NCBI GenBank assembly: GCA_963682055.1
Contig: OY821745.1
Coordinates: 12,841,501-12,905,500, forward strand
From: Primula veris
Lineage: Eukaryota > Streptophyta > Magnoliopsida > Ericales > Primulaceae
Length of the DNA: 64,000 nucleotides
Direction of reading: 5' to 3'
In this document: one piece after another, positions 6,900 through 51,256 of the stretch
Numbering within the stretch: position 1 is the first letter of the stretch
How the letters are laid out: every line of letters begins with the position of its first letter
The notes under the pieces: generated by a model
The model's input: only the letters and a program-made list of their open reading frames with translations
Databases searched by the model: none
What the model was told of the DNA's origin: nothing
Position numbers and translations under genes: made by a program

Positions 6900-7150
6900 A
6901 ATATCCTAAATAAACAAATAATAATTTAGTTAAAATGGTAAATATAAAGTTTTTGTGTAGTCTGATAATCATATTACAAAAAAATTTAAACTAATAAATT
7001 CGTATTTGTAGTCAATTTTTATATATGTATTGTTTGAATTTTTTGGATCAATGGACAAGTCATATAAGTAATAGGCTCCAAATTTCTTTAATTTTTTTTC
7101 TATACCGTTTATTATTGTTATTGTAATAAAAAAAGAGGGTGGATTAATTA
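6900..7150. other. Short AT-rich spacer
   Basis: No coding or repeat structure beyond A/T richness. It may continue the older repeat that the copia element entered (4680-4788 carries a GGGGTGCCGTCGTCACCCC-like terminus). Confidence 0.5.
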
Positions 7151-7165
7151 ACTACATTTAATCTT

Positions 7166-7241
7166 AAAAAACGCTGAAACCGTAGATTAAATCTACGGTT
7201 TACAGTGATTCACTGTAAACCGTAGATTTAATCTACGGTCT
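7166..7241 (+). repeat. Left terminal inverted repeat (palindrome pair)
   Basis: It starts AAAAAACGCTGAAACC and contains two 21-bp near-perfect palindromes, CCGTAGAT...ATCTACGG, at about 7179-7199 and 7219-7239. They are separated by TACAGTGATTCACTGTA, which is itself an inverted repeat. The whole TIR can therefore fold into successive hairpins. A likely role is transposase binding. Confidence 0.9.
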
Positions 7242-7330
7242 GTGTAATTTCTGCAGAAATTACACAGTCAGTCCCTGCTTTTCAGAATTACACAGTCAGT
7301 CCCTGCGCCAAAATTACACAGCAGGTCCCT
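7241..7330 (+). repeat. Subterminal short repeats next to the left TIR
   Basis: AATTACACAG followed by TCAGTCCCTGC or CAGGTCCCTG recurs three times (about 7256-7330). Short subterminal direct repeats often flank transposon ends. The right end lacks an obvious equivalent. Confidence 0.6.
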
Positions 7331-7549
7331 GAAAAACAGAAATTTACGTTTTTTTTTAAAAAAAAACATTTTTTATACTACATTCTCTCTCTTTCTCTCA
7401 AAAACCCCCAATTTTCAACCCAAAAAATCACCCAAATCAATCAACCACATTAACTATCAAATTTATTAACAAAAAACCCCAAATCATCAATCAAACTTAT
7501 CCATAATTGAAGCTATATCTTTTATTCTCTAATTTATTATTTATTTTGT

Positions 7550-7861
7550 GTAATTTCTATTTGTAAAATAGGAAAAAATATATAAAATATGCAAATCCAT
7601 AATTCACTTAGCTATATATAATTGTTTGTTGTTTGTTTATATTAATTATAGAAATTTTAATAATTGTTGATATTTGTCCCATTTTTGCATGTTTTTTTAT
7701 TTTTTGTAATTTTAATTTGTAAAATAGGAAAAAATATATAAAATATGCAAAACCATAATTCACTTAGCTATATATAATTGTTTGTTGTTTGTTTATATTA
7801 ATTATAGAAATTTTAATAATTGTTGATATTTGTCCCATTTTTGCATGTTTTTTTATTTTGT
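7550..7861 (+). repeat. 156-bp tandem duplication inside the MULE
   Basis: The block beginning near TTGTAAAATAGGAAAAAATA (7561) recurs at 7717. The two copies extend through the GTCCCATTTTTGCATG box with very few differences. It is non-coding and AT-rich, in the leader region ahead of the PMD gene. Confidence 0.85.
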
Positions 7862-7899
7862 TTGGTTAATTTTAATTGTTGATAATGTGTTTGGTTATG

Positions 7900-8815
7900 A
7901 TTAAAAAATTGAGTTATTATTGTTTGGTTTATGATTAAATGTGTTTGGTTATGATTAAATGTGTGTTTGGTTATGATTAAAAAATTGAATTATTATTGTT
8001 TGGTTTATGAAAAAATGTGTGTTTGGTTATGATTAAAAAATTGAATTATTATTGTTTGGTTTATGAAAAAATGTGTGTTTGGTTATGATTAAAAAATTGA
8101 ATTATTATTGTTTGGTTTATGAAAAAATGATTGTTTGGTTATCATTAAAAAATTGAATTATTATTGTTTGGTTTATGAAAAAATGTGTGTTTGATTATGA
8201 TTAAAAAATTGAATTATTATTGTTTGGTTTATGAAAAAATGTGTGTTTGGTTATGATTAAAAAATTGAATTATTATTGTTTGGTTTATGAAAAAATGTGT
8301 GTTTGGTTATCATTAAAAAATTGAATTATTATTGTTTGGTTTATGAAAAAATGTGTGTTTGGTTATGATTAAAAAATTGAATTATTATTGTTTGGTTTAT
8401 GAAAAAATGTGTGTTTGGTTATGATTAAAAAATTGAATTATTATTGTTTGGTTTATGAAAAAATGTGTGTTTGGTTATGATTAAAAAATTGAATTATTAT
8501 TGTTTGGTTTATGAAAAAATGTGTGTTTGGTTATGATTAAAAAATTGAATTATTATTGTTTGGTTTATGAAAAAATGTGTGTTTGGTTATGATTAAAAAA
8601 TTGAATTATTATTGTTTGGTTTATGAAAAAATGTGTGTTTGGTTATGATTAAAAAATTGAATTATTATTGTTTGGTTTATGAAAAAATGTGTGTTTGGTT
8701 ATGATTAAAAAATTGAATTATTATTGTTTGGTTTATGAAAAAATGTGTGTTTGGTTATGATTAAAAAATTGAATTATTATTGTTTGGTTTATGAAAAAAT
8801 GATTGTTTGGTTATC
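7900..8815 (+). repeat. 56-bp tandem array, about 16 copies
   Basis: Unit of 56 bp (for example starts at 8521 and 8577) containing GTGTGTTTGGTTATGATTAA and TTGTTTGGTTTATGAAAAAA. Most central units are identical; edge units are shorter or carry GATTG or ATCATT variants. A decayed tail of GGTTATCATTA motifs continues to about 8965. The array ends just upstream of the PMD start codon, so it lies in that gene's promoter or 5' UTR. No spacers differ between units, so it is not a CRISPR array. Confidence 0.9.
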
Positions 8816-8974
8816 ATTGTTTGGTTATCATTAATTGGTTATCATTGAGTTATCATTATTTGGTTATCATTACTTGGTTATCATTGAGTTATCATTGTTT
8901 GGTTATCATTAATTGGTTATGTTATCATTTTTTGGTTATCATTAATTGAGTTATATTTGGTTATCATAGTTAGG

Positions 8975-11357
8975 ATGGCAGACCCAGGTCCACATATTAA
9001 AGGGAGGTTGGGTATTTTACGACAGACTGGTCACATTTCTAATCAGACTTGGGATGCTGGCAGAGAAGCGGGTAGAGGAGATGCCAATAAGATTAGGGTT
9101 TATAATTATAGTTGGCAGATACCGACGCCTGAAAGGGTAGTTCAAAATATCATTAGGGCTGGTTTTTACGGTATTTACAGTATAGATAATTATACCGTAG
9201 ACCGAGGGTTGATTACAGCCTTAGTTGATAGGTGGCGTGATGAGTCGCACACGTTCCATTTTGTCGGGGGAGAGTTGGGGATATCTTTACAGGATGTAGA
9301 GATTATGCTTGGTCTGAGGGTGGATGGTCTTGCTGTGACCCGGTCGGAGCGGAATGACACGAAGGCGAGCAGGTTGGCTATGATGGAGAGTTTGTTGGGT
9401 GTTAGGCCGGCTGACAATCAAGTCGATCAAAACTGTCTGACAGTTAGACTTGATTGGATGTTACAGACCTTCGGTGAATTACCCCCCAACCCTAGTGAGG
9501 AGCGTTTACTATATCAGTCTAGGGCTGCCATGCTATTATTACTGGCTGCACATGTGTTTTCGGATAAGAGCAGTGATCAGATTCCACTCTGGCCTCTGCC
9601 ATTTCTGGAGGATTTTGACACATGTGCTGAGTATAGTTGGGGATCAGCTCTTCTGGCCTGGTTAGAGGCTAATCTATGCAGGGTGGTACGTTGTAAGACA
9701 ACCGGAGTAAGCGGGGCGGTGATGTTTCTGGATATGTGGGCGATTACCAGACTACTGCCGGTTAGACCGTGTGAAGAGCTGCCGGAAGATGTCGAGCCAC
9801 CGGAGGGCTTGCCTAGGTTCCCCCTCGGTTACAGGTATGATATTTATTTAGTTTTTGAATTGGATTTGCTTTTTTATATTATTGTGTCATCTATCATTTA
9901 CTTAGCTGCCGGTTATATTTATTGTTTATCGGTTTTTGTTTGTATATTACAGATGGAAGATGTGGAGGCAAACTAACCTTACGCCATATGTCTACGGACA
10001 TAATGTGGTCCACATACGTGACCAGTTTGACAATATGTCGCCTGAACAGGTAAATTTTAATTTTCGTATTATATGTAACTTACGTATTATATGTTGTATA
10101 TGTTTGCATTTGTCTTATGTTCGCAGAATTTATTACTCGTCTATTTTTAAACCATTGTTTATATATTCTAATTTAATGATTACAGATAGTGTGGCAACCT
10201 TACGGGGATCTCAATCAGTATCCGGAATACTGCACGCGGGGCCGTTATATGTGGCATTGTTCTGTGCCTCTCATTTGTAATGAGAAGATTGAGTACCACC
10301 CCGCAGACAGGTTCATGAGACAGTTCGGTTTTGTGCAGCGGGTCCCTACATATATTTGGAAACCCAGACATGGTCACGGCAAGGATAGAAGATATGGGAT
10401 TGGGCAAAAACACGACTGGCCTTTACTAACCGGAGAATTTATAGCCGTGTGGAATGACCGCCACACCCGTCTTATTAACGGCGAATATGGCACGGGGACG
10501 TCACCGGATTACATGAAATGGTATAGAGAGCGGACCCGCATCTTCATAAACCCACCTGAACTTGCCCCGCCATCTCACGGTTTCCGGGAGCATACAGGGT
10601 TGTTCAGTAAAATGGTAACAACTAATTAAAGTTCATTAATATTTGATTGTTATTTTTCTGTTTGTATATTTCAATACTTATAAAATCGTTTTTGATTGGT
10701 TTTTATTTTCAGAAAGCGGTATTGCGCCGAAATTTCAAATCATTCAAACAGCATAAATTGAAAACGGAAGTGGACTTACTACGAAAGGACTTCGCTGAAA
10801 TGGGATTGAATCCGTACGGGTCAGCTGATGAACAGTCGGATGGGGAGGATGACGATGACGACGACGACGACGACGATGGTGATGACGACCTACGTTACGA
10901 CCCAAGAAATTACACTAGGTCGGCAAGTTGTCGGTGTCCCGACGAAAGAGGCAGAGGGGAAGGCGAATCTAGTAGCGGCGGTAGAAGAACCAGTGGAGGT
11001 CGACCCCCGACTACAGATCAAGGTCCGGGTCCGAGTTCAAGCGGTCATGGTCGTTGTGCTTCTTTTGCTGGGTCGGGCTACGTTCAGGATGATGTCCCGT
11101 TCGATCATCATAGACAATCATTTGGGTCGTACGAGCATCATCCTAGTCATCAGTCAACCGACAGTTGGAGTCGAGGGTTGACAGTTACATCCCACGAGCG
11201 TGCGCCGCATCCAGAATCGCAGCAGCGACAAAGACGGCGTACGGAGCTAAACGAAATCGAAGAGTCTGCTGAGCCGTCATCCGATAGATTAACATCGGCG
11301 GGAAAGATGCTCCCTATGTCCAACTTTAAAACATTTAGTCGTTACAAAAAAAAATAA
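8975..11357 (+). CDS. Plant mobile domain (PMD) protein carried by the MULE
   Basis: Four exons give an uninterrupted 676-aa product: 8975-9834, 9953-10049, 10186-10614 and 10713-11357, all with GT-AG introns and matching phases. I chose the ATG at 8975 (MADPGPHIKGRL) rather than the in-frame ATG at 8957 because the latter lies in the repeat tail. The protein shows the PMD fold seen in MAIN/MAIL1 and 'phosphatase 7 long form homolog' proteins: YGIYSIDNYTVDRGLITALV, then a WRDESHTFHF block, ELGISLQDVEIMLGLRVDG, and VWQPYG with RRYMWHC-like aromatic patches in exon 3. Exon 4 adds a coiled, basic stretch, a run of about ten Asp, and a disordered Ser/Gly/His/Arg-rich tail. PMD proteins are nuclear and linked to transposon silencing; they also occur inside transposons. 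The exact role of this copy is unknown. Confidence 0.88.
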
Positions 11358-11570
11358 ATGCACTGTTTTTGTATTTGATTTCTATGTTTGATTTGTCAGT
11401 TTTATTCTTAGCTAGGGTTGGAATATTATAAATTCGTAGGTTTAATTTGATTTCTATGTTTGATTTGTACGTTATAATTTCGTAAGTTTAATTTGATTCG
11501 TATGTTTGATTTGTATGTTTTAGGGTAAAAAATATTATGTATTTTAATTGATAGGACCAATATTGAGTTT
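11358..11570. other. PMD gene 3' region
   Basis: AT-rich, with repeated TTTGATTTCTATGTTTGATTTG motifs. It probably contains the 3' UTR and polyadenylation region. No gene seen. Confidence 0.5.
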
Positions 11571-12005
11571 TTACAAACCCTAAACCCTAAACCCTAAACC
11601 CTAAATTACAAACCCTAACCCCTAAACCTTAAACACTAAACCCTAAATTACAAACCCTAAACCCTAAACACTAAATTACAAACCCTAAACCCTAAACCCT
11701 AAATTCTAAACCCTAAACCCTAAACCCTAAATTACAAACCCTGACCCCTAAACACTAAACCCTAAATTACAAACCCTAAACACTAAACCCTAAATTCTAA
11801 ACCCTAAACCCTAAACCCTAATTTACAAACCCTAACCCCTAAACCCTAAACCCTAAATTACAAACCCTAAACCCTAAACCCTAAATTACAAACCCTAAAC
11901 CCTAAACCCTAAATTACAAACCCTAACCCCTAAACCCTAAATTACAAACCCTAACCCCTAAACCCTAAATTACAAACCCTAAACCCTAAACCCTAAACCC
12001 CTAAA
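11571..12005 (+). repeat. Interstitial telomere-like CCCTAAA array
   Basis: About 430 bp of plant telomere-type heptamers (CCCTAAA), in runs of two to four, regularly broken by ATTACAAA and by CCCCTAAA or CACTAAA variants. It sits inside the MULE between its two genes, far from any chromosome end. The regular ATTACAAACCCTAA blocks show it grew by local tandem duplication rather than by telomerase alone. Confidence 0.95.
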
Positions 12006-12027
12006 AACTAAATATTCTGAAATATAC

Positions 12028-12606
12028 ATACAAACCGTACATTTAATGTACGGTTTGTACAGATTTCATACAAACCGTACATTAAATGTACGGTTTGCAT
12101 GTTTTATGTGCAAACCGTAAAAGTAATGTACGGTTTGCACCCCTGATTTGAGCAGCGACGTTTTACGAATGTACTTTTTACACGGAATCACCGTTAATAA
12201 CGTAAAAAAAAAATAAACTACAAACCGTAAAAGTAATATACGGTTTGTAGTGTAAATTACATTGGATACCATATCTATCAAAATAATTCCGACAACACAT
12301 TATCACTTTTGAATTATTATGACTTGACAACCCTATCCGAAAATGACTACTCAATGCATTATTAAAGTTTCGAAATGACTACACCAAAAAAAACACTACA
12401 ACCCGTAAAAGTAATATACGGTTTGTAGTGTAAATTACATTGGATACCATATCTATCAAAATAATTCCGACAACACCTTATCACTTTTGAATTATTATGA
12501 TTTGACAAACCTATCCGAAAATGACTACTCAATGCATTATTAAAGTTTCGAAATGACTACACCAAAAATTCACTACAAACCGTAAAAGTAATCTACGGTT
12601 TGTAGT
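12028..12606 (+). promoter_or_regulatory. Cluster of six palindromes upstream of the transposase gene
   Basis: Six imperfect palindromes of the form CAAACCGTA-N9-TACGGTTTG lie at about 12029-12059, 12070-12099, 12111-12138, 12217-12250, 12396-12428 and 12571-12605. They share the CCGTA...TACGG arms with the palindromes in both TIRs. The last one ends about 140 bp before the transposase ATG. The last three include a ~178-bp tandem duplication (12217-12394 and 12395-12570). A reasonable reading is that the transposase binds the same motif at the ends and at its own promoter, allowing autoregulation; this is inference. Confidence 0.7.
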
Positions 12607-12743
12607 GTAAACTTACCCTATAAATATGACTCAATTTTGCCAATTCTAACAAACCATAAAATCAAACACAAACACATTTCGGAAATCTCTAAAAAAATCC
12701 TCATTTCTCCCCAATAAAATATACAAACAAACACTTTTCGAAA

Positions 12744-15440
12744 ATGAATTACAACTATGGTTATGACAACAACCAATGGAATAACAACAACAATGCGAAT
12801 TCATCCAGTGACTCAAACGATGAGCTAACTGATTATTCGGAGCACTTTGAAGTTGATGAATTGACTTGGGAAACAAGGGATGAAATGCTTGCTGATCTTG
12901 CTGATGTGGCTGGAAATTGGGGTTTCATTATTACGATTCGTAGGTCTGGAGGGGGTGATGGGAGCAGAACACCGTATGTTGATATTGTGTGTGATAAATC
13001 GGGGGTTTACGAAAAAAAGAAACCATCTTCCGTAAAATCAGGTACAAAGAAAAAAGACTGTCCATTTTTCATTAAAGGTTACGTAGTTAATGGTGAATGG
13101 ATGTGTCACGTAGAAAATGGACAACATAACCACCCACCTCCAACTTACCTCCAAGGTCAAGCACGACGTGCTCGTTTAACCCAAGATGAAAAAGAAATTG
13201 TTAAAATTTTAAGGCAAAGTAGTTTTAAAGTTGGTGCAATATTAGAGGCCATTAAAAATCGAAATCCTGACAATGTATCAAACACTAAAACGATACATAA
13301 TTTTTTGGCCGGACTGAAATTTAAAGAACGAGATGGTAGAAACCCGACACAGGAACTTTTTAATTTGTTGGATAGACATCGCTACACATTCTACTATAAT
13401 ATGAACCCATCAACCCATTGCCTTGAGAACTTATTTTTTGCACACCCCGATTCTATAAGGATGTTCAAAGCTTTTCCTGATGTCTTGTTAATGGATTGTA
13501 CATATAGGACAAACCGTTTTAATATGTCATTTCTAGAAGTCGTAGGAATGACATCAACGAACCAAACATATTGTTTAGGTTTTGTTTTCATGAGTGACGA
13601 GACACAAGAAAGTTATATATGGGCATTGGAAAATTTTAAAGTTACATTGGAGGGGTGTATACTACCTAGGGTGTTTGTAACCGACAGGGAAATGGCCTTA
13701 TCAAATGCTTTATCCGTTGTTTTTCCCGATTCTCATCATATTTTGTGCACTTTTCATATTGCAAAAAATGTTTTGAAAAACTGCCGTAAAAAGATCCCTG
13801 ACGAGGAGTGGCAAACGTTTCTAGATGATTGGGGTTTATTGGTTGATTCTGAGTCGATAGAGGAGTACAATTATAACCGAACTAATTTCAATTCCTCTTA
13901 CAAATCGTACCCTGCTGTGATTAAGTATGTAGACAAGCTTTTAAATGATTATGCTGAAAAGTTTGTTGCATGCTATACCAACCACACAACACATCTAGGT
14001 AACAGAACTAGCAATCGAGCCGAACAACAACATGCTAAGCTGAAAAGATCCCTTTCCACAAATACTGGCACGCTTGAAACTGTTTGGGTAGAGGTGAATA
14101 GAATTCTAGAAAAACAGTTTGAGGATATTAAGACGAAGTTGGATAAATGCAAGTCTTATTTTCCACATTCTGAAAAAACGCCTCTATTTATAAATCTTAG
14201 GTCGTATATCACACACTATGCCTTTGATTTATTATTCCAAGAACACAAAAAATGTAGTGGCCAGGCTGATGAGAATTGTTCTTGCGGTTTTAAATTGTCT
14301 CACGGTTTACCTTGTCATCATATTATTAGTGAACATATTTTATTCGGGAAGCCTCTTCCTCTAGAATATATTCATCCATTCTGGAAAAAATTAGACGTAA
14401 TTGATGATAATGGGAACACCGATGATTATGGGGTAGAGGGTGATCTAGAAGAGTTTAAAAGTGTTTATGCTAGCAAAACGAATGTTGAAAAACGGCGTAT
14501 GAAAACACAACTCCGAGAGATAACCGTACCATCCAGAACATCCGTCAGTGACCCCGAAGTGAGAGCAAATAGGGGGAGACCTAGAAAAGGCGACAAATCT
14601 AGTAAGAGGGATAAGTCAGGATGGGAGTATGTGGAGGAACAGAGTGCTGGTGCTAGTAGGGAAAAGGGTAAAGGCAAGGCGGATGAAACACCGGAGGTAA
14701 GGGTAAATCCAACTAGGAGGCCGCGAAACCAGAACCCTAAACCCACCCCCAATAGGGCAACCTTCCTGTACAGTGACCAAATATGGGTCATGTTACATAG
14801 TTACATCGAAACAGTTTATGATGTGCGTGGGGATGGTAACTGTGGGTTCCGGGTACTTGCAAATGCGACGGGTAAACAGAATGGGGAAGATGATTGGTAC
14901 GCGATAAGATGTGAGTTGTTTCAAGAGCTGCAGCAAATGAAAGGTGTTTATTATGAGCTGTTTGAGAATCTTGACTTTGAAGCTTACCGGTATGATTACA
15001 TTTTATCAAGTTTAAATTTTTATCATCCTACAGATCCCGCACCTATTGACAAATGGATGAGATTTCCGTCTTATGGGTTTTTAATTGCTTCTCATTACAA
15101 TATGCCAATTGTATTGTTGTCCTTATGGGAAAATCAAAATGGAGGGGTAAACGTGTGGAACAGTACTTTTTTACCGCTTTATACTGGTCCGCCTCAGGGA
15201 ACGACATATTACATCCCGACTGTAATGGTGTTCGTCAACAGTTGTCACTATGCTCAGGTTATTCCTAAAGAAGGGATCTTCCCAATGCCAGGAATTATAG
15301 CACGGTGGGAACAAACACGCACTGAGGCAGCTGCGCCATGGAAGGAACTTTTTCGACCAAATTTCAAATTATATATGGCGCTGGAAAAGCAATCGGGAAA
15401 GAAAAAAGCAAATGAAGAACCTATAGACCTAAGTCCATAA
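12744..15440 (+). CDS. MULE transposase fused to OTU cysteine protease
   Basis: Single-exon, 898-aa ORF starting at the first ATG after the palindrome cluster. An Asn-rich N-terminus is followed by a FAR1/WRKY-GCM1-like zinc cluster (C83, C106, H128, H130). The MULE transposase core has D251 (MDCTYRTN), D314 (VTDREMA), the CxxH at 335-338 (CTFH) and E427 (NRAEQQHAK), consistent with an intact DDE set. A SWIM zinc finger follows at 512-526 (CSCGFKLSHGLPCHH), then an AT-hook at 610-615 (RGRPRK) and a basic linker. The C-terminal ~200 residues form an OTU domain with D697-G-N-C700 (GDGNCGFR) and catalytic-type H835 (NSCHYAQV). The protein would cut and paste the element; the OTU part would be expected to cleave ubiquitin or a ubiquitin-like protein. 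All key residues are present, so it may be active. It lies inside TIRs to which it probably binds. Confidence 0.92.
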   Translation: MNYNYGYDNNQWNNNNNANSSSDSNDELTDYSEHFEVDELTWETRDEMLADLADVAGNWGFIITIRRSGGGDGSRTPYVDIVCDKSGVYEKKKPSSVKSGTKKKDCPFFIKGYVVNGEWMCHVENGQHNHPPPTYLQGQARRARLTQDEKEIVKILRQSSFKVGAILEAIKNRNPDNVSNTKTIHNFLAGLKFKERDGRNPTQELFNLLDRHRYTFYYNMNPSTHCLENLFFAHPDSIRMFKAFPDVLLMDCTYRTNRFNMSFLEVVGMTSTNQTYCLGFVFMSDETQESYIWALENFKVTLEGCILPRVFVTDREMALSNALSVVFPDSHHILCTFHIAKNVLKNCRKKIPDEEWQTFLDDWGLLVDSESIEEYNYNRTNFNSSYKSYPAVIKYVDKLLNDYAEKFVACYTNHTTHLGNRTSNRAEQQHAKLKRSLSTNTGTLETVWVEVNRILEKQFEDIKTKLDKCKSYFPHSEKTPLFINLRSYITHYAFDLLFQEHKKCSGQADENCSCGFKLSHGLPCHHIISEHILFGKPLPLEYIHPFWKKLDVIDDNGNTDDYGVEGDLEEFKSVYASKTNVEKRRMKTQLREITVPSRTSVSDPEVRANRGRPRKGDKSSKRDKSGWEYVEEQSAGASREKGKGKADETPEVRVNPTRRPRNQNPKPTPNRATFLYSDQIWVMLHSYIETVYDVRGDGNCGFRVLANATGKQNGEDDWYAIRCELFQELQQMKGVYYELFENLDFEAYRYDYILSSLNFYHPTDPAPIDKWMRFPSYGFLIASHYNMPIVLLSLWENQNGGVNVWNSTFLPLYTGPPQGTTYYIPTVMVFVNSCHYAQVIPKEGIFPMPGIIARWEQTRTEAAAPWKELFRPNFKLYMALEKQSGKKKANEEPIDLSP

Positions 15441-16120
15441 TCGGTTTTTTATTTTTAATTTTATGTAAATTACTATTTTTTCCAATTTGTTGTAAATTTA
15501 TATGATGTAAACAAATGTTTAATAAATTTGTTTTATGAAATTTAGTTCTATGAAATTTTGTTGTAAATTTTGTTGTAAATTTTGTTTAATAAATTTGTTT
15601 TATGAAATTTATAAGTTGATATTCATGTTTGCATATTGCGTTATACAAGTGTTAAATACAAACCAAAAAAACTTCACAAAAATTGACGATTTAGTTAATG
15701 ATACAATAAATATCAACTTATACACTTGACAAAAATATAACATGAACCAAAAACATAAATTTTATCAAATCAACTTTTTTTGTGTAAATTTGTGTAAATT
15801 TTGTGTTTATTTTTACAGATTGTTAGAATATTCGTAATTTATTTTATGTAAAATTTTAAAAATAAGTCATTTTGTTTTTAAATTTGAAAAAAACAAAATG
15901 TCTTATTTGAAAAAAATATCAACTTATACACTTGAAAAAAAATCAACTTATACACTTGAAAAAAATATCAAATTATACACTTGAAAAAAATATCAAATTT
16001 TAAACATAAGGCATTTTTATGTAAAAAAAAATCATGTTTAATTTGAAAAAAATATTCAGTATTTTAATTTTAATTATTAGAATTTTAATTTTAATTTTTA
16101 ATTTCAAAAAATCTGTGAAA
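15441..16120. other. 3' non-coding part of the MULE
   Basis: AT-rich, with a small tandem repeat of AACTTATACACTTGAAAAAA at about 15905-15990 and short repeated TTTGTTGTAAATTTTG motifs near 15540-15590. It probably includes the transposase 3' UTR. No gene seen. Confidence 0.6.
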
Positions 16121-16128
16121 ACACAGAG

Positions 16129-16257
16129 ACCGTAGATTAAATCTACGGTCTACAGTCATTGACTGTAGACCGTAGATTAAATCTACGGTTTACAGTCAAT
16201 GACTGTAGACCGTAGATTTAATCTACGGTTTCAGCGTTTTTTCAGAAATTATGTAGT
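16129..16257 (-). repeat. Right terminal inverted repeat with three palindromes
   Basis: Bases 16167-16242 are the inverted counterpart of the left TIR, with three mismatches in 76. The right end carries one additional palindrome at about 16129-16149. Each CCGTAGAT...ATCTACGG unit alternates with a CTACAGTCATTGACTGTAG-like inverted repeat, giving a chain of nested dyads. The ends are thus slightly asymmetric (two palindromes left, three right). Confidence 0.88.
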
Positions 16258-18415
16258 ACAATAAGTGCACCTCATAAAAAAAAGGCGAAATTAAGTCTCA
16301 CCAAAGAAAGTCAATGACAGGCTCGGGCTTGACTAATTATAGAACTTTTTTGTGGCTCAAAAGTTTTAACTAATTAAGAAGTAATCTATTTCTTTGAATA
16401 TTTTAGTTAGTATTATAATTTGGTAGAAAATAAATGTTTGTTTTAAATGTTTGGTGTTAGTAAATTACAAAATCTTTTGAGGTAAATGATTGGCAGGAGG
16501 GCTTTTTTTCAACTTTAGCATCCTACCGAAATAAATATTTCAGAACCGGCCGGTGAAGGATTGCAATAAAAAATTCTAAGTTCACTAAAATCATGATTCC
16601 CTTTATTTCAATGATTCTAATTCTAGATGAGCCGACGAGCTGTATCCGCTCAAAATCTCGCAAGATTTTGATGTTATTTTGGAAACTGCATTTTCAATCC
16701 AAAATACATAACCTTATTGGTTTTCCATCTCTAGTTAAATACATTTTTTCTAGTCAAATTCCCAAATTACTAATCTTTTATTCATCTAGTAAATATTTAA
16801 TTTACACTATGTGGATTGAGGTATATGGCTATTTTTAAACATTGCACATTGTTGGATAAAATGCTCTTAAGTTGAATTTTATGCAATTCCAGCATAAACC
16901 TTATGCATTTTTAATCGAATATTTCTTATTTTAAAGTGAAGAATTATGTGATTTTAACTTGACCACATGCTCATTTGACTACAGTGTCTTTTTTATCCTC
17001 ATGCTATAACAATAATAGGTGAAATTTTAGTGCCTTTTTTATTTTTGTTTTACATTGTATGAAGGCTGCATATTTTTGCTTAATAAATCTACAAACTCAA
17101 ATTAAAAATAGTAATAGTGGTGGCACGAGAACTTGGATTCAAGATATTGGCGGTTAGGGTCACAAGTTTTTCCCACTCATTTGTATGCCTTTGAACTTCA
17201 AATTAGGTTGGGAGAAACTAGGTATAAGCTAAGTACAGGTTAAGTGGGTTAAAAACACCCATATATATTTTGATAAAAATTTAAATATCATAAGCTTTCA
17301 ACACTTGAATAATTAAAAAAAGTTTACATATGTAATACAGTCTCACCCACATCAACACCCCACCATTGAAACTATGAGTGTGATTTGAAGCTGAACTCCA
17401 TTTTTCAGCTTACTGTCAATCAATATATTTGGTGAAAATGTCTATTTTTTATCGAAAAGGGAAGCTTTTGGATAAAAATGCTGTTTTTTTTTGTGAGAAC
17501 GCCAATTTTAATGAAAATAATTATTATTTTTCTGAAAAGATTGCTATACAACTTTTGTCAGAGATTGTCCTGAAAAAACATCTAGATTCGGAGATTGCTG
17601 GAAGAGACAATTACTAAAAAAGTACCATATTTCCTAAACGTGATTATCTCAAAACTTTTCTTTCCAAACATTGTCACTTTCTCATTACGATTGTGTATAT
17701 ATTTTATCGGAGGGACGACCCATTAGAGGTTCGACAGAGCTCTGGTAACCTTCTTGTTAATCTGATACGAGAAAGAGTATGCATTTAGAAAAGCCATGTA
17801 CTTTTCACGGAAATTCTATACATTACCTAATTGTGTAAGCAATTTGTCGGATCATCACCACCGCCGTAACTCATGATCAAGTGATGGGTGTGTGTGTGGG
17901 GGCAGGGAGAAAAGTATAATGTGATTAAAATTAATTGTCAAGAGAAAGTTGGATATGTTGTGCTAGGTTTGAGACCAGCAGCGAGAAAATTGCACTTTTT
18001 GGAAAGAAAATGTTTGGATAATATTTTTTGATTATTTAGTTTAAAAATTGACACTTAATGTGAATTTACCTTTGTTGCAGTTAAGTATTCAAATCTTGAA
18101 TATTAAGCTAATGTTTTTCAAAAAGTAACTTTTAAAGATTACATTTAATTTAATTTTTAACTCATTATTTTGGATAGAAAAAAACGAGCTATATGATTCT
18201 GATCTTGTCTTGTCATTTGTATTGTTGACTCAACTTCTTTCGAACCGTATTATACATTTGTTTATGCATGTCCATTCTGAAAAATAACGGTGTACACCAA
18301 ATTGTGTGCAAGTGAAACGTTGGTGCGTTTTAGTATGTTTGATGGCATAAATTTGAAAAGTGTAAAATTGGGTGTATCAAACTGTAATTTTAAAAGAAAT
18401 TAGGGATAATAATCA
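16258..18415. other. Intergenic DNA between MULE and RDR2
   Basis: AT-rich, with no coding signal that I can support. Small open frames (16593-16838, 17429-17617) match nothing I recognise and have no splice context. Part of 17100-17950 is less AT-rich and may be an old repeat. Confidence 0.5.
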
Positions 18416-18855: not shown

Positions 18856-21800
18856 TTAATCTCTAGCTGCCTTAAGAGACTTGATGTTCAACAAAATATG
18901 ACCCATAATCCAAGGAAATCCCAAACAATGAGAACTTTCATGGAAATAGGTCGGGTGATAAGCGACATGATACCATGCAGACGCCAGCTTCTTATGTTGC
19001 TCCTCCTCGTCCCCCTCTTCCTTACAGCAGCTACTTTTGAACCATCCTTTTGCCTCCTTGAAAAGGCTTTTGATGGAAACCGTAATCCTCTCTCTCATCT
19101 CAGTATACTTCCGGTTATCTCTTTGTAGGTAGTTTGAACGAGTCCGCAAGTTACCAGTCAATATCTCATCTTCGCTTTCAGCAGCGTAAAAATTCATCAG
19201 AGTAGTCATCTTATCACAGTACATATCTTTGTGATTCTTTGCAATCTCAACAAATTCTTCAAAGCCCTCCGCTAGGAGATCATTATCATAGTAAGCATCC
19301 TCCTCCTGGTTTATCGTCGTCATATCTACATCTGAATTCTTGTTTCGGTACGAGGATGAGCTCATGAGGGCACGATAGAGTGCACCAAGTACCCCATTGG
19401 AAACGTAACTAGGTCTCTCAACTCTCTCCATAAAATCTGGAAACTCCTTTGGTTTCAAATAGTTGGGCATCTCAGCTGCTGCTCCTGTTTTTGCAAAGTC
19501 AACGGCCATTGAATGAAGATTTGCCAACTCAAGGCATTTTGGACTCAGGGCTTTGTCCGGCTCACGGTCTGCATGTATTAGATGGGCTGTCGAGATGATT
19601 CCCAGGGTATCGTTCACCATGTAATCCACAAAAAAATTATGAATTTCCTACAAGGAAGAAACCGATTACTTAATTAGGTATTGTATGAATCAAGTAAAAG
19701 TTTCTGTATTACAGAAAAAACGAATTTATTTACTTCCAAAGATACATCATGGTCCATTATACGAGGCCTCCGTCCGGAGTAGTCCATAGGGGCCACAGTC
19801 TGGCTTGGGATTAGGTGTTCATCCCAGCTTATGAAGTACAAGTCTCCATCAAGATCACCGCCGGAACACTCGTTAGGATGAGGCCTGTGCATGTACACAT
19901 ATACATATCAGTATTAAAGGCAAATATCAAATAATCTAACACGTCACTTCAGAACAAAAGAGCAAAGGCAACACATTTGTTACACCACTATTCTGGAGGA
20001 TGAAGGCTTCCATAAAAAATGAACTTTACTTTTTGTGTAAATACAACCTGGGACTATTGAAGCAGATAAACTTAGCTCAAGCTCAGTTGAACATGAGAAT
20101 AGTTTCTGAGAACAAATGGATGCAAGAAAGTATTATTTGTATCTAGCGTCCTTCTAAAACAATAGTACTATAATCAAAAGTAAAGAAATTACGGTTGTGG
20201 TATAGTACCTTTTACCCTTTTGGGGGAAGACAATGCAATTGACCAAACCTTTGTCAACCAATCCCACCTCACAAATGGCCTCAAGAACTCTAACATCTCC
20301 TGGGTGAAGACACGGATTCTTTGTGACCACAACCTTCCCAACCACTACTGAGGTTGTCTTGTCTACTTTCTTAAAGTAGCTGCTCTTCCCTTCTTCACAC
20401 TCCATCAGCTCACTTTTAGTCATCGTAATTCGTGCATAAACCTGTCCATAATCTAATATACCAGTTTCGTCCAAACACCCTATCAAGATTCGTCCCTTTG
20501 GAACATGAATTCTGCACCTTACCTTTAAATCGTACAAAAGATTGTCATGGTGGGCTTTGAGCATCATATGGAGATACGGTTCCTTATTAGGCTCATAGCT
20601 CTGTTGTAACATCTTTCCGAGGATGTTTTTAGCATCGTTTGAGGCCAAGCTTTCAAGTACATTCATTGCAGCGTCTCTAGACGTTAGCATTTTATCCAGA
20701 AGACAAAGCTGCTGGTCTTGCATTGCCACGAAAACCGAGTCGTCAATCCCTAAAGTAGACAAAAGGGAGAGAATCTCGCGGTTCAAGTAACAAGGCATAG
20801 AATCGCAACATTTAGTAACATTCAACATTCTGTTTTTTGAATCAAATTTAAGCATGCTCCGGCGCAAAGAGAGTTTTCTGTACGAATTACGGTCAACAGC
20901 TATGACACCTTTATACCCTCCGTATCTAATCTGGAATGCTGACGGAGTAGGTTTTGACTCCAACCCACACATGTCAGCAACTTGTCTAGCAAAGGAGGGA
21001 GATATCTTCCCAATCCCATCAGAGAAACAGTACGAAACACCGTCCATAGTAACTTCAATATCCGGAATACTTTCGACTTCGTGAGGAAGGACTTCGAGTG
21101 TCTGCGTAGAAGCACTGAATAGCTGACCCATCCTAGCAGCACATTTAGACACGCTTCGGATTTTGTTAAAGCAACCCATCCACTCTCTAATATCTTCGGC
21201 TTTCACATTTTCATTTGAAGCAAACATCCACACAGCATTCGACCGGAGTTGGCTTGCCGAGAATGCCAAGAATTGGAATCTCTTGTTTCCAATCACAATC
21301 CCGTCTCGAAGGACCGACAAGATCCTATGATAAATATCGGTTTTGTATGTTTTTCCGAATATACCTTGCTGGATGGTAGCGGAGACCGCGTTAGCCGGAA
21401 GCTTGCTCCAATCTTCTTCGACAAAAGTGACCCTCATGAAATCCGATGCATACGCGGAGAAATTTTTAACAACATGATTTGAGGTTTCGAGCTCCGGCCC
21501 CAAACAGTATATCTTTGTCGGAGTGACTAGGACTCTGTGACACCTCATCATATTATGATTTGTCAACCTGCTAAGGGAGGTCGAAGGGAGATTCTTGCTG
21601 CTTGCTGTAAGTAAATGCTGGTGGACCTTGATAAACTTGAAAGGATCGTAACATATATGTTCTCTTTTGTGTAGCTTTTGAAAAACGAGCACAGCCGTGT
21701 CCATGTTTAAACTGCTAAGGAGGTTGATGAGATCGTCATCCACCGAAGCGAGACTGATCTTGTGGGTATGAACAAGGGAACAGAGCTGAAAAAGGATCTC

Positions 21801-24099
21801 ATACGACAATTTATAACCCGATGGGCAACTGACAAGTGGAACAAGGTCGGACGCAGAAGATAAACCAAAATCGACCCCTTGTTCGAGAACTATATGGTGT
21901 ATCGACACTTTATTAAAATACGGTAATCTTGCGAAGACATCTAAAGGCGCTTGGTCTTCTCTGAATTGAAAGCAAAGGGAACTGGATTGGCCAATTGACT
22001 TGATGACGGAGAAATCGGTTGTGCGAACCCAAACAAATCCTATGTCCTCCTTGCACATGAAGTACCGATTCTCACTTAACCTTGAATTCACATTAGGCCC
22101 TGACATCCTCTTGAATATCTTGGGTGCGTACTTGAGCTGAAAAAATAAGAAAACGAGAATGTGAATGCAGTAACAACAGGTAGCACGACCAATGGTCTAA
22201 AATAAAATAAATCTAAATTCGGCAGATCTAGTTACTCCTCCGTACTTATAGACGAAGTAATTGGGTGAAAACAATGGACAGAACCCCATATTGTTGCTAT
22301 TCAAAATAAAAAAAGTACCTTTAGCATGGTGCAATTTAAATTATAGCTGCTACCCCATTAATAGATAAAACCAGTCGACATACGAATTCCGCTATCTCCC
22401 CCACAACAATCATGGAACATTAATTGTGTTTTAGCATAACATCAAGTTCTTTTATTTAAATTCCGAACGAACAAAGTCTTATAAGAATTTTTTGCTATTT
22501 ATATAGAATATAGATATGGTTATGTCGTGCATTTGCTGATATTTGCCTAGTTGATGATGATATTCCTATTTTTCTCACTACTTGTCGCTTTTTTAAGTTG
22601 ATTTACACTTTTACTTCTGCCAATGAGATCTTTAAATAAGCTAGATTTTGGGTGAGAAAAACTAAAAAAGCTCAAAAGCTAGGATTTTGGTGCTTCACCT
22701 AGCTTTTTCGCGACTATTTTTGAACTTGAAAGAAGCGTTTCGCAGGTAAAACAAAATACTCTTGATCAATGTGTATCTAAAAGGAAAATCTAGCAGCAGC
22801 CGTCTACCTGCCTAATAATTTCAATTCACATAAGGGCAGCAGCAATTGTATCCCCCGCCCTTAAGACATTTGCTCAATGTATCAAACCAATTTTGTTTAC
22901 ATATACGAGGGTCCTTTTAAATTACAAAATCCAGGCATCCGTTTTTTACCTTTTACATAATGAAAAAATAACGCACGCCCAATCTGGAATTTCGATTTTG
23001 TGAATTGGTTATGTTTTATAACATTACATCATGGAAAATCCAGCTTTTTAAAGATGGCTGCGAGACACTCCTCGCAGCTCTTTTAAAATAAGTTTCCTAT
23101 AATAAAATTTCTAATAACGAGCTTACCCCCCCCCCCCCCCCCCCAAAAAAAAAAAGAGTTGATCCCAAACAGTACCTGTCTACCTGAGTTTTACAAGCAG
23201 ATGATTATTTAAGATTTTACACAATAACGACGGTAATATCCTAATGTAATAATTTCATAATAATTAACCTTCCCTCCGGTACGACAGGGTATAAAATAAA
23301 ACTAGATGAACAAGAAGCAGCACCAGAAATATCCTCATCCAAATTGAAAAAATCAGAATAAAATAAAACAAAAAACCTCACAAACAATTAATTCCAAGAA
23401 GAGTAAGTAATCTTTCGTTACCTTAAAAAGGATCGCATCGGGTTTGTTATCATACGTATCCGCTTTTCCATTGGTAGGATCCGAACAAGAACACAAAGCA
23501 GCAGATGCCTCGATTATATAATCAATCGGAATCTCCAACTTATAAAAACCAAAACTATTATCATCACTATCATTACTCTTCACTTGAAGAAAAAACTCAA
23601 TGCTGTTTCTTTCTGGCATGACCGAAACGTTAACGTTTTCCCATGCCTCAAGAACCGGAAAACAGCAATTTTTATTATAATTCTCCTCACCCAAGAAAAG
23701 ACCGCAATGCAGGGTCCCTCCACCCTCGTAAACCGCCCTGTTCAAAGGGTCCATCGGCCTAGCAACAATATCATCGAACGAAGGGGTTAACGAAAGGGAA
23801 AAGTTGTTAAACACGAGTTTTCCCTTTTCTGAAAGGCTTAAAGCTGTGTTCTTAGCTTCTAGGGTTTGGAACTGTATTTTCCCATACCCTCTTGACTTCC
23901 AGTTTTTGTGCTCGCTCGCTATATCGCAAGCGAAAACAAACCCGCCTTCTTCGCCTTTTCCTCCTAATGATCCTGCTTCTGTGTTGTAGGTGATTAAAGA
24001 GTTTTCTAAAAAGTCTAGTAATTGTTTAGCAGTGGATGATTTGGGAATGTTGTTTACTCTCACTGTTAGCCTCCCCTCATTCCCCATTACTCCAACCAT
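18856..24099 (-). CDS. RDR2: RNA-dependent RNA polymerase 2 (RDR2)
   Basis: Four coding exons on the minus strand: 24099-23422, 22136-20209, 19884-19734 and 19647-18856. All introns are GT-AG and phases match, giving about 1,182 aa, slightly longer than the usual ~1,130. An N-terminal RRM-like segment (about residues 8-110) has an extra Gly/Glu-rich loop. Exon 2 carries the long RdRP region (EDWSKLPANA, FLAFSASQLR, CFSDGIGKIS, FQIRYGGYKGVIAVDR, VTKNPCLHPGDVR). The catalytic DLDGD loop is at about 879-883 at the start of exon 3. The MCKEDIGFVWVRTTDFS stretch and C-terminal FPWIMGHILLNIK favour RDR2 over RDR1 or RDR6. RDR2 makes the double strand of Pol IV transcripts for DCL3 in nuclear RNA-directed DNA methylation. 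No frameshifts or stops seen. Confidence 0.95.
22137..23421 (-). other. RDR2 intron 1 with poly-C/poly-A tract
   Basis: This 1.3 kb intron splits the RRM-like exon from the main polymerase exon. It contains a run of 19 C followed by 11 A at 23126-23155. Such a tract is prone to slippage and sequencing error. No other element is obvious. Confidence 0.7.
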
Positions 24100-48100: not shown

Positions 48101-51100
48101 ACCTTTCTCAGCCATGTCAGGAAATAAGTTCAGCATTCTAACCGACCAACCAGATCAACGACTTATAAGTTACAGGGAAAACAAGTTTAAAAGAAGCCCA
48201 GTATCTAATCCCTTAAAAAGAAGCTGCTTTCATTCTGCTCAATGTTTCTACTAAGAGAAGAAAAACAAAGACCTCTCTTAGCTGGCTAACTAAATACATG
48301 TAAACTCAATAAGCTAAAAAGCATACAAAATTAAGCTTACAAGCTGCAACCAAACAAGCACAAATTATTTAAAATCATTACCTGTTAGTGACAAACATGT
48401 CATAAGTTGTAGCAGCCCCGTTTGCACCCTCTGGTGGGGCTGAGGCCGCATGAGTAAGGACCACAATTGCGTTAAACCAAATACCCTGTCCAAACACGTC
48501 GGTGATTGTTCTCAACAACGGCATATCACCGGAATCTCTCGTCTGCATATCCAACCGATCAAGATATAGCACAATATCCGGAGGAGTTTTCTTTATAAAT
48601 CGCTTAACAGATAATAAAATCTTCTCGTTCTGTCTCTGGTCCGACCACGACGGAAAAAGCCCCGGCGTATCTATCACACGTACCTTAATACCTTGTACTG
48701 TTCCAACAACATCTTGGACCTTTTTAGTACCCTGTTGAAAAGCATCAGTGTTGAATTTGACCTCGTCAAAAATGGAATTAATTGTGGCACTTTTACCCAC
48801 CCCGCTTTTCCCGAGAACCATAATTGTGCAAGAAAAGTCTAACGGTTCTTGGCCATTTGCCTCGAGTTGCTCGGCCATAGCGCTAGCTCGGTCAAAGCTA
48901 AAACCGGCTACTCGACCTCCGCTTCCCCCTCTAAGCTGTTCGGCTAGCCCTAGTCGGTACAAAACTTGAGCAACAACAACGTTGTGGGGGGTTTGTCCCA
49001 GTCTATGAGCGAGCCGCAAAAACTTTACCCTTATCATTTGGAGTTTTTCACGGGTTTCGTCATGTTCCTCGGCCTCTCCGTTAGGTACATCGTCAACTTG
49101 TCTTTGGACGTGAGATGTTGTTCCGTTGGCACGATTAGAGACATTCGATACAACACGAGGAGCTGTTTCTAATAGCGGAGCAGCGCGGCCAAGGCCAGCT
49201 GGACGAGCTGGTGGAGTAGCATGATTCACAGACACATTAGTGTTAGGTGCAGGTAAACTTGGACCATTTTTCCCGCGAGTATTTTTCTTATCCGCCTCAA
49301 CTGTTACTCCTGCAATCTCATCCTTTTTTGTGTCAGCATTAAAAGATTCAACAGCTGGCAGAGCAGTTGAAGTTGTGAACACGTCAGATACAGGCTTAAT
49401 TTCACTTGGACCATTTCCGTCCTGAGTATTTTTCGTATCCACCTTGGTTTTTTCTTCTAAAATTTCATCACTTTTGGTGTTGGCAATAAGAGATTCGGCA
49501 GTTTTTTCAGCATTAGCTCTATCAACGACTTTGTCAGATGCATTATCCTGAGCTGCCTCAGCTTTTTCTACCGCCACATCATAAAAAACGGGTGACGTTT
49601 TGATCTCTGAAGTTTCTTCTTTTTCTTCCACTGAAGATTCGGGATTCCCATTCGTTAGTGACTTTTTGACCTCTGGAGTTTCCTCTCTTTCTTCCACTGA
49701 AGATTCAGGCTTCCCATTTGTTAGTGTTTTTTTGACCTCTGGAGTTTCTTCTCTTTCTTTTACTGAAGAATCAGGGTTCCCATTCGTTAGTTGGTGATCA
49801 AAAAGTGGAGAGGCTAAATCACGCCTAAGCTCCTCACTATCCGTAAGATGGTTCACCGTTTCATCATTTTTGCCATTCTCATGCAAGGAATTGATGGCTT
49901 CTTCTCTGATTTCCCTACAATTCTCCTCACCTTCAAGTTTGGTATTCAAAGTAATGGATTTTTTTTTGGCTTCTACCCCAGAAGCTGCATCCCCTTCCTC
50001 TTCAAATAGTTCTTTATCTTCATGGCCATTGACAAGTGAGCTCGATATTCCCTTAGTTTGTTCGCTCTCTTCAGCTTTATCCAAGCTCTCAACTCGGTCA
50101 GTTTTTGGTTCTTCTTCAAGTAAAGTTTGCTCCACATTGGCACGCCCATTATCAGAAATTTCAGAAGCAACTTTACCCTCCAATTCTATAGCATCAGAAA
50201 TGCCGTTTTCATGTTTCTCAAAAATCACATCTTCTTGGATCTCCTTATCATAAACAACAGCATCATCTACCTCCATCACCACTTCCTTTTTCATTATTTC
50301 CTTATCGTCATCGGCAACTGTAGTGATATCAGATGCTTCATTTTTTCCTGTTACGTCATCCCCAATATTGACGTCCTCCACCACTGGATTAACACCAAGA
50401 GGTACTTCTCTCGTATTTTCAATAGTGGGTAATCTATCCTCTGGCTTATCATGTTCAATGGGATCTTCAACTGCCTCCAAAAAACTCTCAAAATCAATTC
50501 TGCTATCAGTTTTCTCATGAACAACCAAAACATTATCCACACTATCAATTTCATCTTTTTCATTTTTCTCCATTACAGCTTCCCCATTATTAACTTCATC
50601 TACACCTGGCTTATCAACTGGTTCGACACCCAAAAATACTGCTACTGGGTCTTCAAATTTGACCGATTTATCCTCTTGATTATCAACATCGACAGGAACT
50701 TCAACTGCCTCCTCAAAATTCTCAAAATCAACTCCGCTATCAGTTTTTACATGAGCAGTTATATCATTCTCCACATTTTCCTCGTTTTTCTCCATTATGC
50801 CATCTTCATTATTGATTTCCGCTACCTTAGGCTTATCAACTGGTTGCATACCTACAAATACTTCTCCATTATCTTCAGTACTAGCTGATATTTTCTCTTT
50901 ATCATCGACATCATTGGGAACCTCACTTGCTTCCTCAAACTGCTCAAAATCAATTTCACTATCGCTTTTCTTATGAGCATCTACTTTACTATACAAATTC
51001 TCAGCTTTTGCGAAGTCGTCATCTGGGTAGCTAATAACATTTTCTGAATACACGGATGATATTTCAGCTGCTATTGAATCCTCAAAGACTTGGTCTCCTT

Positions 51101-51224
51101 CAGAGTTCTTTGATTCATGAGACACAGCCTTAGCTTTTTCGTCTACCCCAAAATCCATTGTATCATTCTCCATGGCTTTATTCACCAGATTAGGGGTTTC
51201 TACACTCCCTAACCCATTTTCCAT
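45157..51224 (-). CDS. TOC132: Toc120/132-type plastid protein import receptor GTPase
   Basis: Three coding exons: 51224-48382, 47917-47234 and 45916-45157, all GT-AG with matching phases, about 1,428 aa. The start is the ATG at 51224 (MENGLGSVE). An acidic A domain occupies roughly residues 1-690 and is longer than usual because of repeats. The AIG1-type G domain follows, with P-loop GKSGVGKS at about 805-812 and DTPG at about 852. Exon 2 carries the coiled, Lys-rich middle (SHVVQQAIRQAAGD, NRAGQRVLPNGQVWKPHLL). Exon 3 carries most of the membrane-anchor M domain, built of beta-strands (VRPVLDSHGWDHDIGYEGI, MDWHGDLAIGGNIQSQ). The C-terminus LVALIPLIQKVLGH..QFGQ resembles Toc132/Toc120 rather than Toc159. 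It sits in the outer envelope TOC complex and favours housekeeping preproteins. The paralogue (120 or 132) cannot be decided. Confidence 0.94.
46040..46480. mobile_element. MITE-like repeat in a Toc gene intron
   Basis: Boxes such as TATAGTTTCAGTTGCAACAC, GGTCCTCGTAGTTTAAATAA and CTATGGGGACAATTAG recur in direct and inverted order. Related to 41610-41890. Non-coding; termini not resolved. Confidence 0.45.
49596..49792 (-). repeat. Three 66-bp coding repeats in the Toc A domain
   Basis: Encodes three 22-residue units of the form LTNGNPxSSVxEREETPEVK in tandem. Only a few residues vary, pointing to recent in-frame expansion of the disordered acidic domain. Confidence 0.88.
50324..50963 (-). 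repeat. Three ~75-residue repeats in the Toc A domain
   Basis: Each unit has (V/I)DFExFxEAxEVP, an acidic DxxD stretch, a GVxPVDKP-like box and a NNxxxxMEKNE-like box, at about residues 88-160, 161-238 and 239-300. More diverged than the 22-residue repeats, hence older. Confidence 0.8.
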
Positions 51225-51256
51225 CACAACTTTCTATATTCCCAAAAGAATATTTG
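51225..51256 (-). other. Toc 5' UTR exon end and intron acceptor
   Basis: On the minus strand a pyrimidine-rich TTTTTTTTGTTTCTTATTG followed by CAG ends at 51257, a strong 3' splice site 32 nt before the ATG. This implies an intron in the 5' leader. The matching donor is not certain: candidates are at 58067-58068 and 59012-59013, or a nearer GTATGC at about 51514. Confidence 0.7.

What the first reader, a model, noticed from the sequence alone, without database searches (positions are those of the whole stretch)
7151..16257. A transposon that packages a DDE transposase-OTU protease fusion with a PMD gene
Seen: matching TIRs enclose two fully open genes, one a PMD protein and one a MULE transposase with an OTU domain retaining GDGNC (C700) and H835. 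Known: PMD proteins (MAIN/MAIL1) influence transposon silencing in plants; some MULEs carry anti-silencing genes; OTU proteins are deubiquitinases. Inference: the element may carry its own kit to resist host control. PMD could act as a decoy or modifier of silencing, and OTU could stabilise the transposase or strip ubiquitin from chromatin or the proteasome route. The three-part combination in one intact element is the best candidate for an undescribed system here.
Basis: partly seen in the sequence, partly recalled or inferred. Interest (0 to 1): 0.88.

Follow-up and report, generated by a model that had tools for sequence, protein, structure and literature searches.

The report
Jumping gene carrying VANC-like anti-silencer
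This is a young, highly copied plant jumping gene whose second gene belongs to a family predicted to fold like VANC21, a transposon protein that lifts silencing from its own DNA, so the element likely carries its own means of escaping host control.

The parts
7126..7134 (.). left target-site duplication ATAAAAAAA
   Evidence: exact 9-bp match to 16274-16282; 16 of 17 testable fetched copies also have an exact 9-bp duplication
7135..7241 (+). left TIR, begins GAGG
   Evidence: a GAGG left end is seen in 19 of 20 fetched copies, the 20th (L028) has no left end in its stretch
7179..7239 (.). two ACCGTAGAT..ATCTACGGT palindromes at 40-bp spacing in the left TIR
7942..8818 (.). 56-bp tandem array (15.7 units) upstream of the PMD gene
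   Evidence: Tandem Repeats Finder; marker of the unit present in 22 of 22 sequences examined, 3-31 times
8975..9834 (+). PMD gene, exon 1
   Evidence: Pfam PMD E 2e-41 for the open frame covering it; splice model
9953..10049 (+). PMD gene, exon 2
10186..10614 (+). PMD gene, exon 3
   Evidence: Pfam PMD E 3e-10 for the open frame 10249-10626
10713..11357 (+). PMD gene, exon 4 (tail with an acidic run)
11580..12005 (.). telomere-like AAACCCT array between the two genes
   Evidence: present in 21 of 22 sequences examined (absent in L026, whose PMD is mostly deleted)
12034..12599 (.). five perfect ACCGTA-N9-TACGGT palindromes upstream of the transposase ATG
   Evidence: 2-6 such copies in each of 22 sequences
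12744..15440 (+). transposase-OTU gene, one frame of 898 aa
   Evidence: Pfam MULE E 5.5e-28; a 98% identical full-length protein, P0001, is known from an ENA contig of 3573 bp
13482..13769 (+). MULE DDE domain, residues 247-342
14811..15293 (+). OTU-like part, residues about 690-850; Cys700 codon 14841-14843, His835 codon 15246-15248
   Evidence: motif read from the sequence; weak VCPIP1 match; Cys and His in 21 of 21 sequences and in L038
16129..16229 (.). three ACCGTAGAT..ATCTACGGT palindromes at the right end
16167..16273 (-). right TIR, ends CCTC
16274..16282 (.). right target-site duplication ATAAAAAAA

Best explanation
The 9,139-bp stretch 7135-16273 is a Mutator-like transposon with a perfect 9-bp target duplication and many near-identical copies in its genome, and its PMD gene, from a family predicted to share the VANC21 fold, likely acts as a VANC-like anti-silencing factor for the element. 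Shown: the element, its two genes, its copies, purifying selection on PMD, the match of a model of a PMD relative to DNA-bound VANC21, and arrays of short repeats in its non-coding DNA. Inferred: (1) the PMD protein binds a motif repeated in the element's own non-coding DNA; the leading candidate is ACCGTA-N9-TACGGT, which sits in both TIRs and just upstream of the transposase ATG, with the 56-bp and AAACCCT arrays as alternatives. (2) Binding removes repressive marks across copies carrying the motif, so the transposase is expressed. (3) The FAR1-like transposase then cuts at the TIRs. (4) The C-terminal OTU-like part would remove ubiquitin from the transposase or from chromatin nearby; this is the weakest step.
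Against: The fold match is for a relative about 40% identical to the window's exon 1, not for the window's own protein, at 10% sequence identity to VANC21. A PMD profile search of PDB sequences does not find VANC21. The DUF1985 matches are weak (best E 0.0021, below Pfam's cut-off), and another model, DUF7745, matches 5 of 26 with a better best E of 0.0007. No binding, methylation or expression data were available. A palindrome shared by TIRs and the transposase promoter is equally what a transposase binding site would look like. The core count is of matches within 4 mismatches, so badly decayed cores would be missed (one 5-mismatch match was left out). All three copies that lost part or most of PMD (L018, L025, L026) keep exact target duplications, so PMD may be supplied in trans, may not be needed in cis, or was lost after insertion.
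Confidence: 0.55

Rival explanations
1. PMD is a transposition helper, like the second protein of MuDR (mudrB, name recalled): it works with the transposase at the TIRs during excision or integration and has no role in silencing. It would also use a DNA-binding fold and the TIR palindromes.
For: The palindrome lies in both TIRs; a second MuDR-type protein is described as apparently required for integration in maize (Dupeyron 2019 introduction, passage cut before the name); a DNA-binding fold fits.
Against: The closest solved fold is that of an anti-silencing protein; the same palindrome class also lies upstream of the transposase gene, a regulatory position; two copies lacking most of PMD (L025, L026) have exact target duplications, though help in trans or later loss is possible.
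Confidence: 0.22
2. The ACCGTA-N9-TACGGT palindromes are binding sites of the FAR1-like transposase, which both cuts the ends and controls its own promoter; PMD binds elsewhere (56-bp or AAACCCT array) or not at all. This rival is about the target and does not exclude a VANC-like PMD.
For: Position in TIRs and upstream of the transposase ATG; palindrome symmetry fits a dimer; core arms hardly vary.
Against: Nothing found here separates the two proteins as binders; the TIR and promoter classes differ at 2-3 arm positions.
Confidence: 0.4
3. PMD is a decoy or dominant-negative form of the host MAIN/MAIL1-PP7L silencing complex, captured from a host gene.
For: MAIN and MAIL1 are PMD proteins needed for transposon silencing (PMC7156037 and PMC5418596 passages); Ikeda et al. 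read MULE PMDs as captures from host genes.
Against: No recent capture is visible in what was read: of six other PMD loci fetched from this genome, four (L037, L039, L040, L043) give no tblastn hit at E 1e-3, and the nearest (L042) is 38.6% identical; in a 46-row tree the element PMD is a long branch of unresolved place. The genome's MAIN/MAIL1 counterparts were not identified, so a closer host gene may exist.
Confidence: 0.1
4. The OTU-like part is a passenger without present function, riding on an active transposase.
For: Its substitutions are not distinguishable from neutral (N/S 2.85 against 3.25 expected, p 0.45; window against L038 p 0.12); Pfam and AlphaFold do not recover an OTU fold.
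Against: Cys700 and His835 in 22 of 22 sequences; pairwise dN/dS 0.52 and 0.49; a Malus relative of the transposase (32% identical) carries GDGNC at the same place, so the fusion is not private to this genome.
Confidence: 0.35

Closest known systems
VANDAL21/Hiun with VANC21 (Arabidopsis; Hosaka 2017 PMC5735166 passages, Sasaki 2023 PMC10398659 abstract; structure 9LNJ, title only)
   Same: MULE with a transposase gene and a second gene; the second gene's family is predicted to share the VANC21 fold and gives weak DUF1985 matches; repeated short motifs concentrated in non-coding DNA.
   Different: Long TIRs here, whereas VANDALs are described as lacking TIRs or having short degenerate ones, with exceptions (PMC6446971 passage); the palindrome differs from the published VANC21 motif YAGTATTAY; the transposase carries an OTU-like part; no anti-silencing test done here.
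Plant MULE groups with a PMD gene (MUDR, MDR, MUDRAVI2, Monocots; Dupeyron 2019 PMC6446971 Table 1) and PMD-transposase fusions (Ikeda 2017 PMC5418596)
   Same: PMD as an accessory MULE gene. The same genome has a second PMD next to a MULE: L041, PMD on the opposite strand to a MULE-SWIM transposase frame.
   Different: Here PMD is on the same strand as a FAR1-like transposase, to which L041's transposase is barely similar (E 0.05) and a Vitis PMD-MULE only weakly (E 1.6e-8). Table 1 lists no PMD for the plant groups with FAR1 (35, 36).
Jittery group (group 36 in PMC6446971)
   Same: FAR1-like N-terminus (weak, E 0.014), TIR length within 39-292 bp.
   Different: Group 36 is listed with one ORF; this element has two genes and an OTU-like extension. 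Group placement was not tested against reference elements.
MuDR-6_HM (Hydra), listed with an 'Ovarian Tumour Gene' in PMC6446971 Table 1
   Same: MULE associated with an OTU gene or domain.
   Different: Animal element, no PMD listed; sequence not compared.
Kaonashi/KIU and other Ulp1 MULEs (review PMC13317346, passages)
   Same: MULE carrying a cysteine protease for a ubiquitin-like modifier; KIU sits in a VANC-type gene.
   Different: Ulp1 rather than OTU, and here the protease-like part is on the transposase, not on the accessory protein.

Membership tests
Mutator-like element (MULE) | MULE DDE transposase domain | tested here: met
   PF10551 E 5.5e-28, 97.8 bits against cut-off 27.6
Mutator-like element (MULE) | 9-bp target duplication | tested here: met
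   exact in the window; 16 of 17 testable fetched copies, L020 the miss
Mutator-like element (MULE) | long TIRs | tested here: met
   about 107 bp, 89% complementary over 98 nt
PMD protein | full-length plant mobile domain | tested here: met
   PF10536 positions 1-347 of 347, E 1.9e-65
VANC anti-silencing protein | VANC21 fold | tested here: met
VANC anti-silencing protein | DUF1985 domain | tested here: inconclusive
   E 0.018 for this PMD, 15.5 bits against cut-off 35.1; 7 of 26 PMD proteins, all weak
VANC anti-silencing protein | binds motifs repeated in non-coding DNA of its own element and removes silencing marks | not testable with these tools
   repeats are present; binding and methylation need experiments
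VANDAL element | VANDAL-type transposase (VANA) | not tested
   no VANDAL transposase sequence was compared
Jittery group (36) | FAR1 domain at the N-terminus | tested here: inconclusive
   PF03101 E 0.014, 16.6 bits against cut-off 28.1
Jittery group (36) | single ORF | tested here: not met
   two genes
OTU deubiquitinase | catalytic Cys and His | tested here: met
   Cys700 and His835 in 21 of 21 and in L038
OTU deubiquitinase | OTU fold | tested here: inconclusive
   Pfam no match; VCPIP1 E 0.036 and 0.67; AlphaFold model of no use
OTU deubiquitinase | cleaves ubiquitin | not testable with these tools
   -

The most novel reading that the evidence does not exclude
The plant mobile domain is the general form of the VANC fold: a sequence-specific DNA reader used by MULEs as a self-directed anti-silencer and by hosts (MAIN, MAIL1) in silencing, so that transposon weapon and host guard are two branches of one protein family.
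Probability: 0.35. Interest if true: 0.86.

Novelty: new variant of a known kind. Interest (0 to 1): 0.68.

Why it matters
What the plant mobile domain does is an open question: in the passages read it is needed for silencing (MAIN, MAIL1) and occurs in transposons, and Ikeda 2017 says its function remains to be determined. A predicted VANC fold gives it one that can be tested directly: sequence-specific DNA binding that changes chromatin state. It would join two literatures, PMD silencing factors and VANC anti-silencers, and could explain why many plant MULE groups carry PMD. The family is a good test case, with many near-identical copies, some lacking PMD, and a countable candidate motif.

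Tried and rejected
Lone trapped host gene: rejected by the copies. Before the copies were read I could not see the duplication, because I anchored it on the wrong TIR end (note). OTU fold by AlphaFold with three sequences: failed. More OTU relatives: a protein search with the OTU region gave only P0001. Viral contigs: no relative. A link to the Arabidopsis DOWN motif: its letters are not in the text I could read. PMD tree: the element's place is unresolved and the row L037 is too long to trust. Listing further OTU copies by DNA search of the genome did not complete, so the share of copies with both genes is known only for the 20 fetched. By coordinates, 11 of the 39 other PMD exon 1 hits have a MULE hit 3.3-4.7 kb downstream on the same strand (distances; two of the 11 are L022 and L028); one search scored only 150 of 1681 candidates, so the other 28 are undecided. 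Bias: the 20 copies were picked by me from plus-strand MULE hits, mostly with long frames, so transposase intactness is inflated; PMD was not a criterion. For PMD dN/dS I dropped L018 and L028 (broken frame) and L025 and L026 (no full PMD). L022 and L027 have lost the usual stop codon and are counted as unbroken. L020 is counted as the one copy without an exact duplication. One of my notes is looser than the calls: says 18 of 20 copies have PMD exons at 95% or more, whereas one search shows all four exons at full length in 17 of 20, with exon identities of 92-100%. A first version of the copy-reading script failed and was replaced.
Full report
What is there. The finding's two genes and TIRs are real. 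Comparing the window with other copies moves the ends outward: 19 of 20 fetched copies show a left end beginning GAGG, and the 20th (L028) has no left end in its stretch. In the window this places the element at 7135-16273 (9,139 bp) with an exact 9-bp target duplication ATAAAAAAA. The PMD gene is not one open frame. Four exons with GT..AG introns give 676 aa, matching Pfam PMD from position 1 to 347 of 347. The downstream gene is one 898-aa frame with a MULE DDE domain and a C-terminal stretch with GDGNC (Cys700) and His835.

It is a family, not a single case. The window lies in a 436.5-Mb genome held as G000, taken to be a plant from its genes. I fetched 20 stretches around MULE hits (plus strand, mostly long frames, so not a random sample). 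All 20 hold the full-length transposase and OTU part, the OTU part at 97-100% DNA identity; 17 of 20 hold all four PMD exons at full length (exon identities 92-100%), L018 has part of exon 1 missing, and L025 and L026 have lost most of PMD. Of the 20, 13 have a PMD reading frame without an internal stop and 18 a transposase frame without one. Of the 17 with both ends in view, 16 have an exact 9-bp duplication; L020 does not, and three could not be tested. A DNA search with PMD exon 1 had 769 first-look candidates and scored 40, all over 859 or 860 of 860 bases at identity rounded to 100%. The TIR palindrome ACCGTAGATTWAATCTACGGT occurs at 3081 places, its reversed control at none. These are signs of a recent, large amplification.

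PMD is kept as a protein. Among 17 sequences dN/dS is 0.27 for PMD; among 21 it is 0.29 for the whole transposase gene, 0.18-0.20 for its N-terminal and DDE parts and 0.52 for the OTU part. With substitutions re-placed at random under the same mutation spectrum, PMD and transposase N/S ratios are far below neutral (0 of 2000 placements as low), but OTU is not (p 0.45). A diverged copy, L038, keeps an unbroken PMD gene beside a frameshifted transposase. Against the window its PMD has dS 0.158 and dN 0.042, its transposase dS about 0.045 and its OTU part 0.063. PMD and transposase have thus diverged to different depths within one element, which suggests that modules are exchanged between copies (inference).

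How it likely works. VANC proteins bind short motifs that form tandem repeats in non-coding parts of their own elements and cause loss of silent marks there (PMC5735166 passages; PMC10398659 abstract). This element has the same layout: a gene of predicted VANC fold and repeated short motifs outside its genes. The most striking motif is ACCGTA-N9-TACGGT, ten times in the window and only inside the element, in both TIRs and upstream of the transposase, with a half-site count of 21 in non-coding and 4 in coding DNA. In the TIRs of 22 sequences the core arms are perfect in 139 of 140 matches within 4 mismatches, while the spacers between cores take 40 forms. Those spacers are themselves inverted repeats (79% self-complementary against 29% when shuffled). 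I infer that PMD, or possibly the transposase, reads this palindrome. Which of the two does is open, and the rival is given nearly equal weight.

The OTU part. The letters support an OTU cysteine protease: Cys700 and His835 in 22 of 22 sequences. A Malus protein (P0002, 32% identical) has GDGNC at the same place, so the fusion is not private to this genome. But Pfam does not match it, VCPIP1 is a weak match, the model failed, and selection is not distinguishable from neutral. I do not claim an active protease.

What is already in print. Ikeda 2017 (PMC5418596, passages) reports PMD in MULEs, reads it as capture from host genes, and suggests an anti-silencing use. Dupeyron 2019 (PMC6446971, section 6 part 1 and passages) lists PMD in most members of several plant MULE groups, often antisense, and an Ovarian Tumour Gene in one Hydra MULE; its plant groups with FAR1 (35, 36) list no PMD. 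In the listings of searches, which asked for PMD and OTU words together with MULE words, no listed paper holds both 'plant mobile domain' and an OTU term; searches listed no paper whose title or shown abstract describes an OTU domain in a plant MULE. The library is open-access only. The two VANC papers held do not contain the words PMD or plant mobile. The paper behind 9LNJ was not seen; only its PDB title was.

Lineage. In this genome PMD lies with at least two kinds of MULE transposase. The window family's transposase, among the eight other MULE loci compared (L001-L008), is closest to L001 (E 2e-24), which has a clear FAR1 domain (E 1.3e-16). L041 has PMD on the opposite strand to a MULE-SWIM transposase frame that is barely similar to the window's (E 0.05); whether both lie in one element was not tested. 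PMD therefore looks like a long-standing, exchangeable MULE module rather than a recent capture, but only six other PMD loci of this genome were read, so that is a partial test.

Noticed in passing
window 18856-22196 (-): RNA-dependent RNA polymerase gene with an RDR2-type PH-like domain; its near end is about 2.6 kb from the element. RDR2 works in RNA-directed DNA methylation (recalled), so an insertion beside it may be worth an expression check.
   Followed up: partly
window 11580-12005: Telomere-like AAACCCT tandem array inside the element, between its two genes; present in 21 of 22 sequences examined, absent in L026 where PMD is mostly deleted.
   Followed up: partly
L009-L028, TIRs: By eye, the two TIRs of one element are often less alike than the genes are between copies, and the same TIR variants recur at left and right ends of different copies: ends seem to be swapped between copies. 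Measured only for the window (89%).
   Followed up: no
L009-L028, TIR spacers: Spacers between palindrome cores change in sequence but stay self-complementary (79% against 29% shuffled), as if symmetry itself were maintained.
   Followed up: partly
L037:2263-2656: Small inverted-repeat stretch with the same palindromes beside a PMD-family gene; looks like a short non-autonomous relative. Similar close clusters lie on C1 near 2.169 and 7.281 Mb.
   Followed up: no
G000 C7 5.96-6.20 Mb, C12 1.04-1.08 Mb, C6 23.4-23.7 Mb: Clusters of PMD matches, several with identical scores; two read (L039, L040) give no tblastn hit to the element's PMD.
   Followed up: partly
P0033 (Heliosperma pusillum): PMD fused to a linker histone H1/H5 domain in a predicted protein; may be a gene-model artefact.
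   Followed up: no
window 48378-51233 (-): 951-aa open frame with an AIG1-type GTPase domain, probably part of a TOC159-like chloroplast import receptor gene (name recalled).
   Followed up: no
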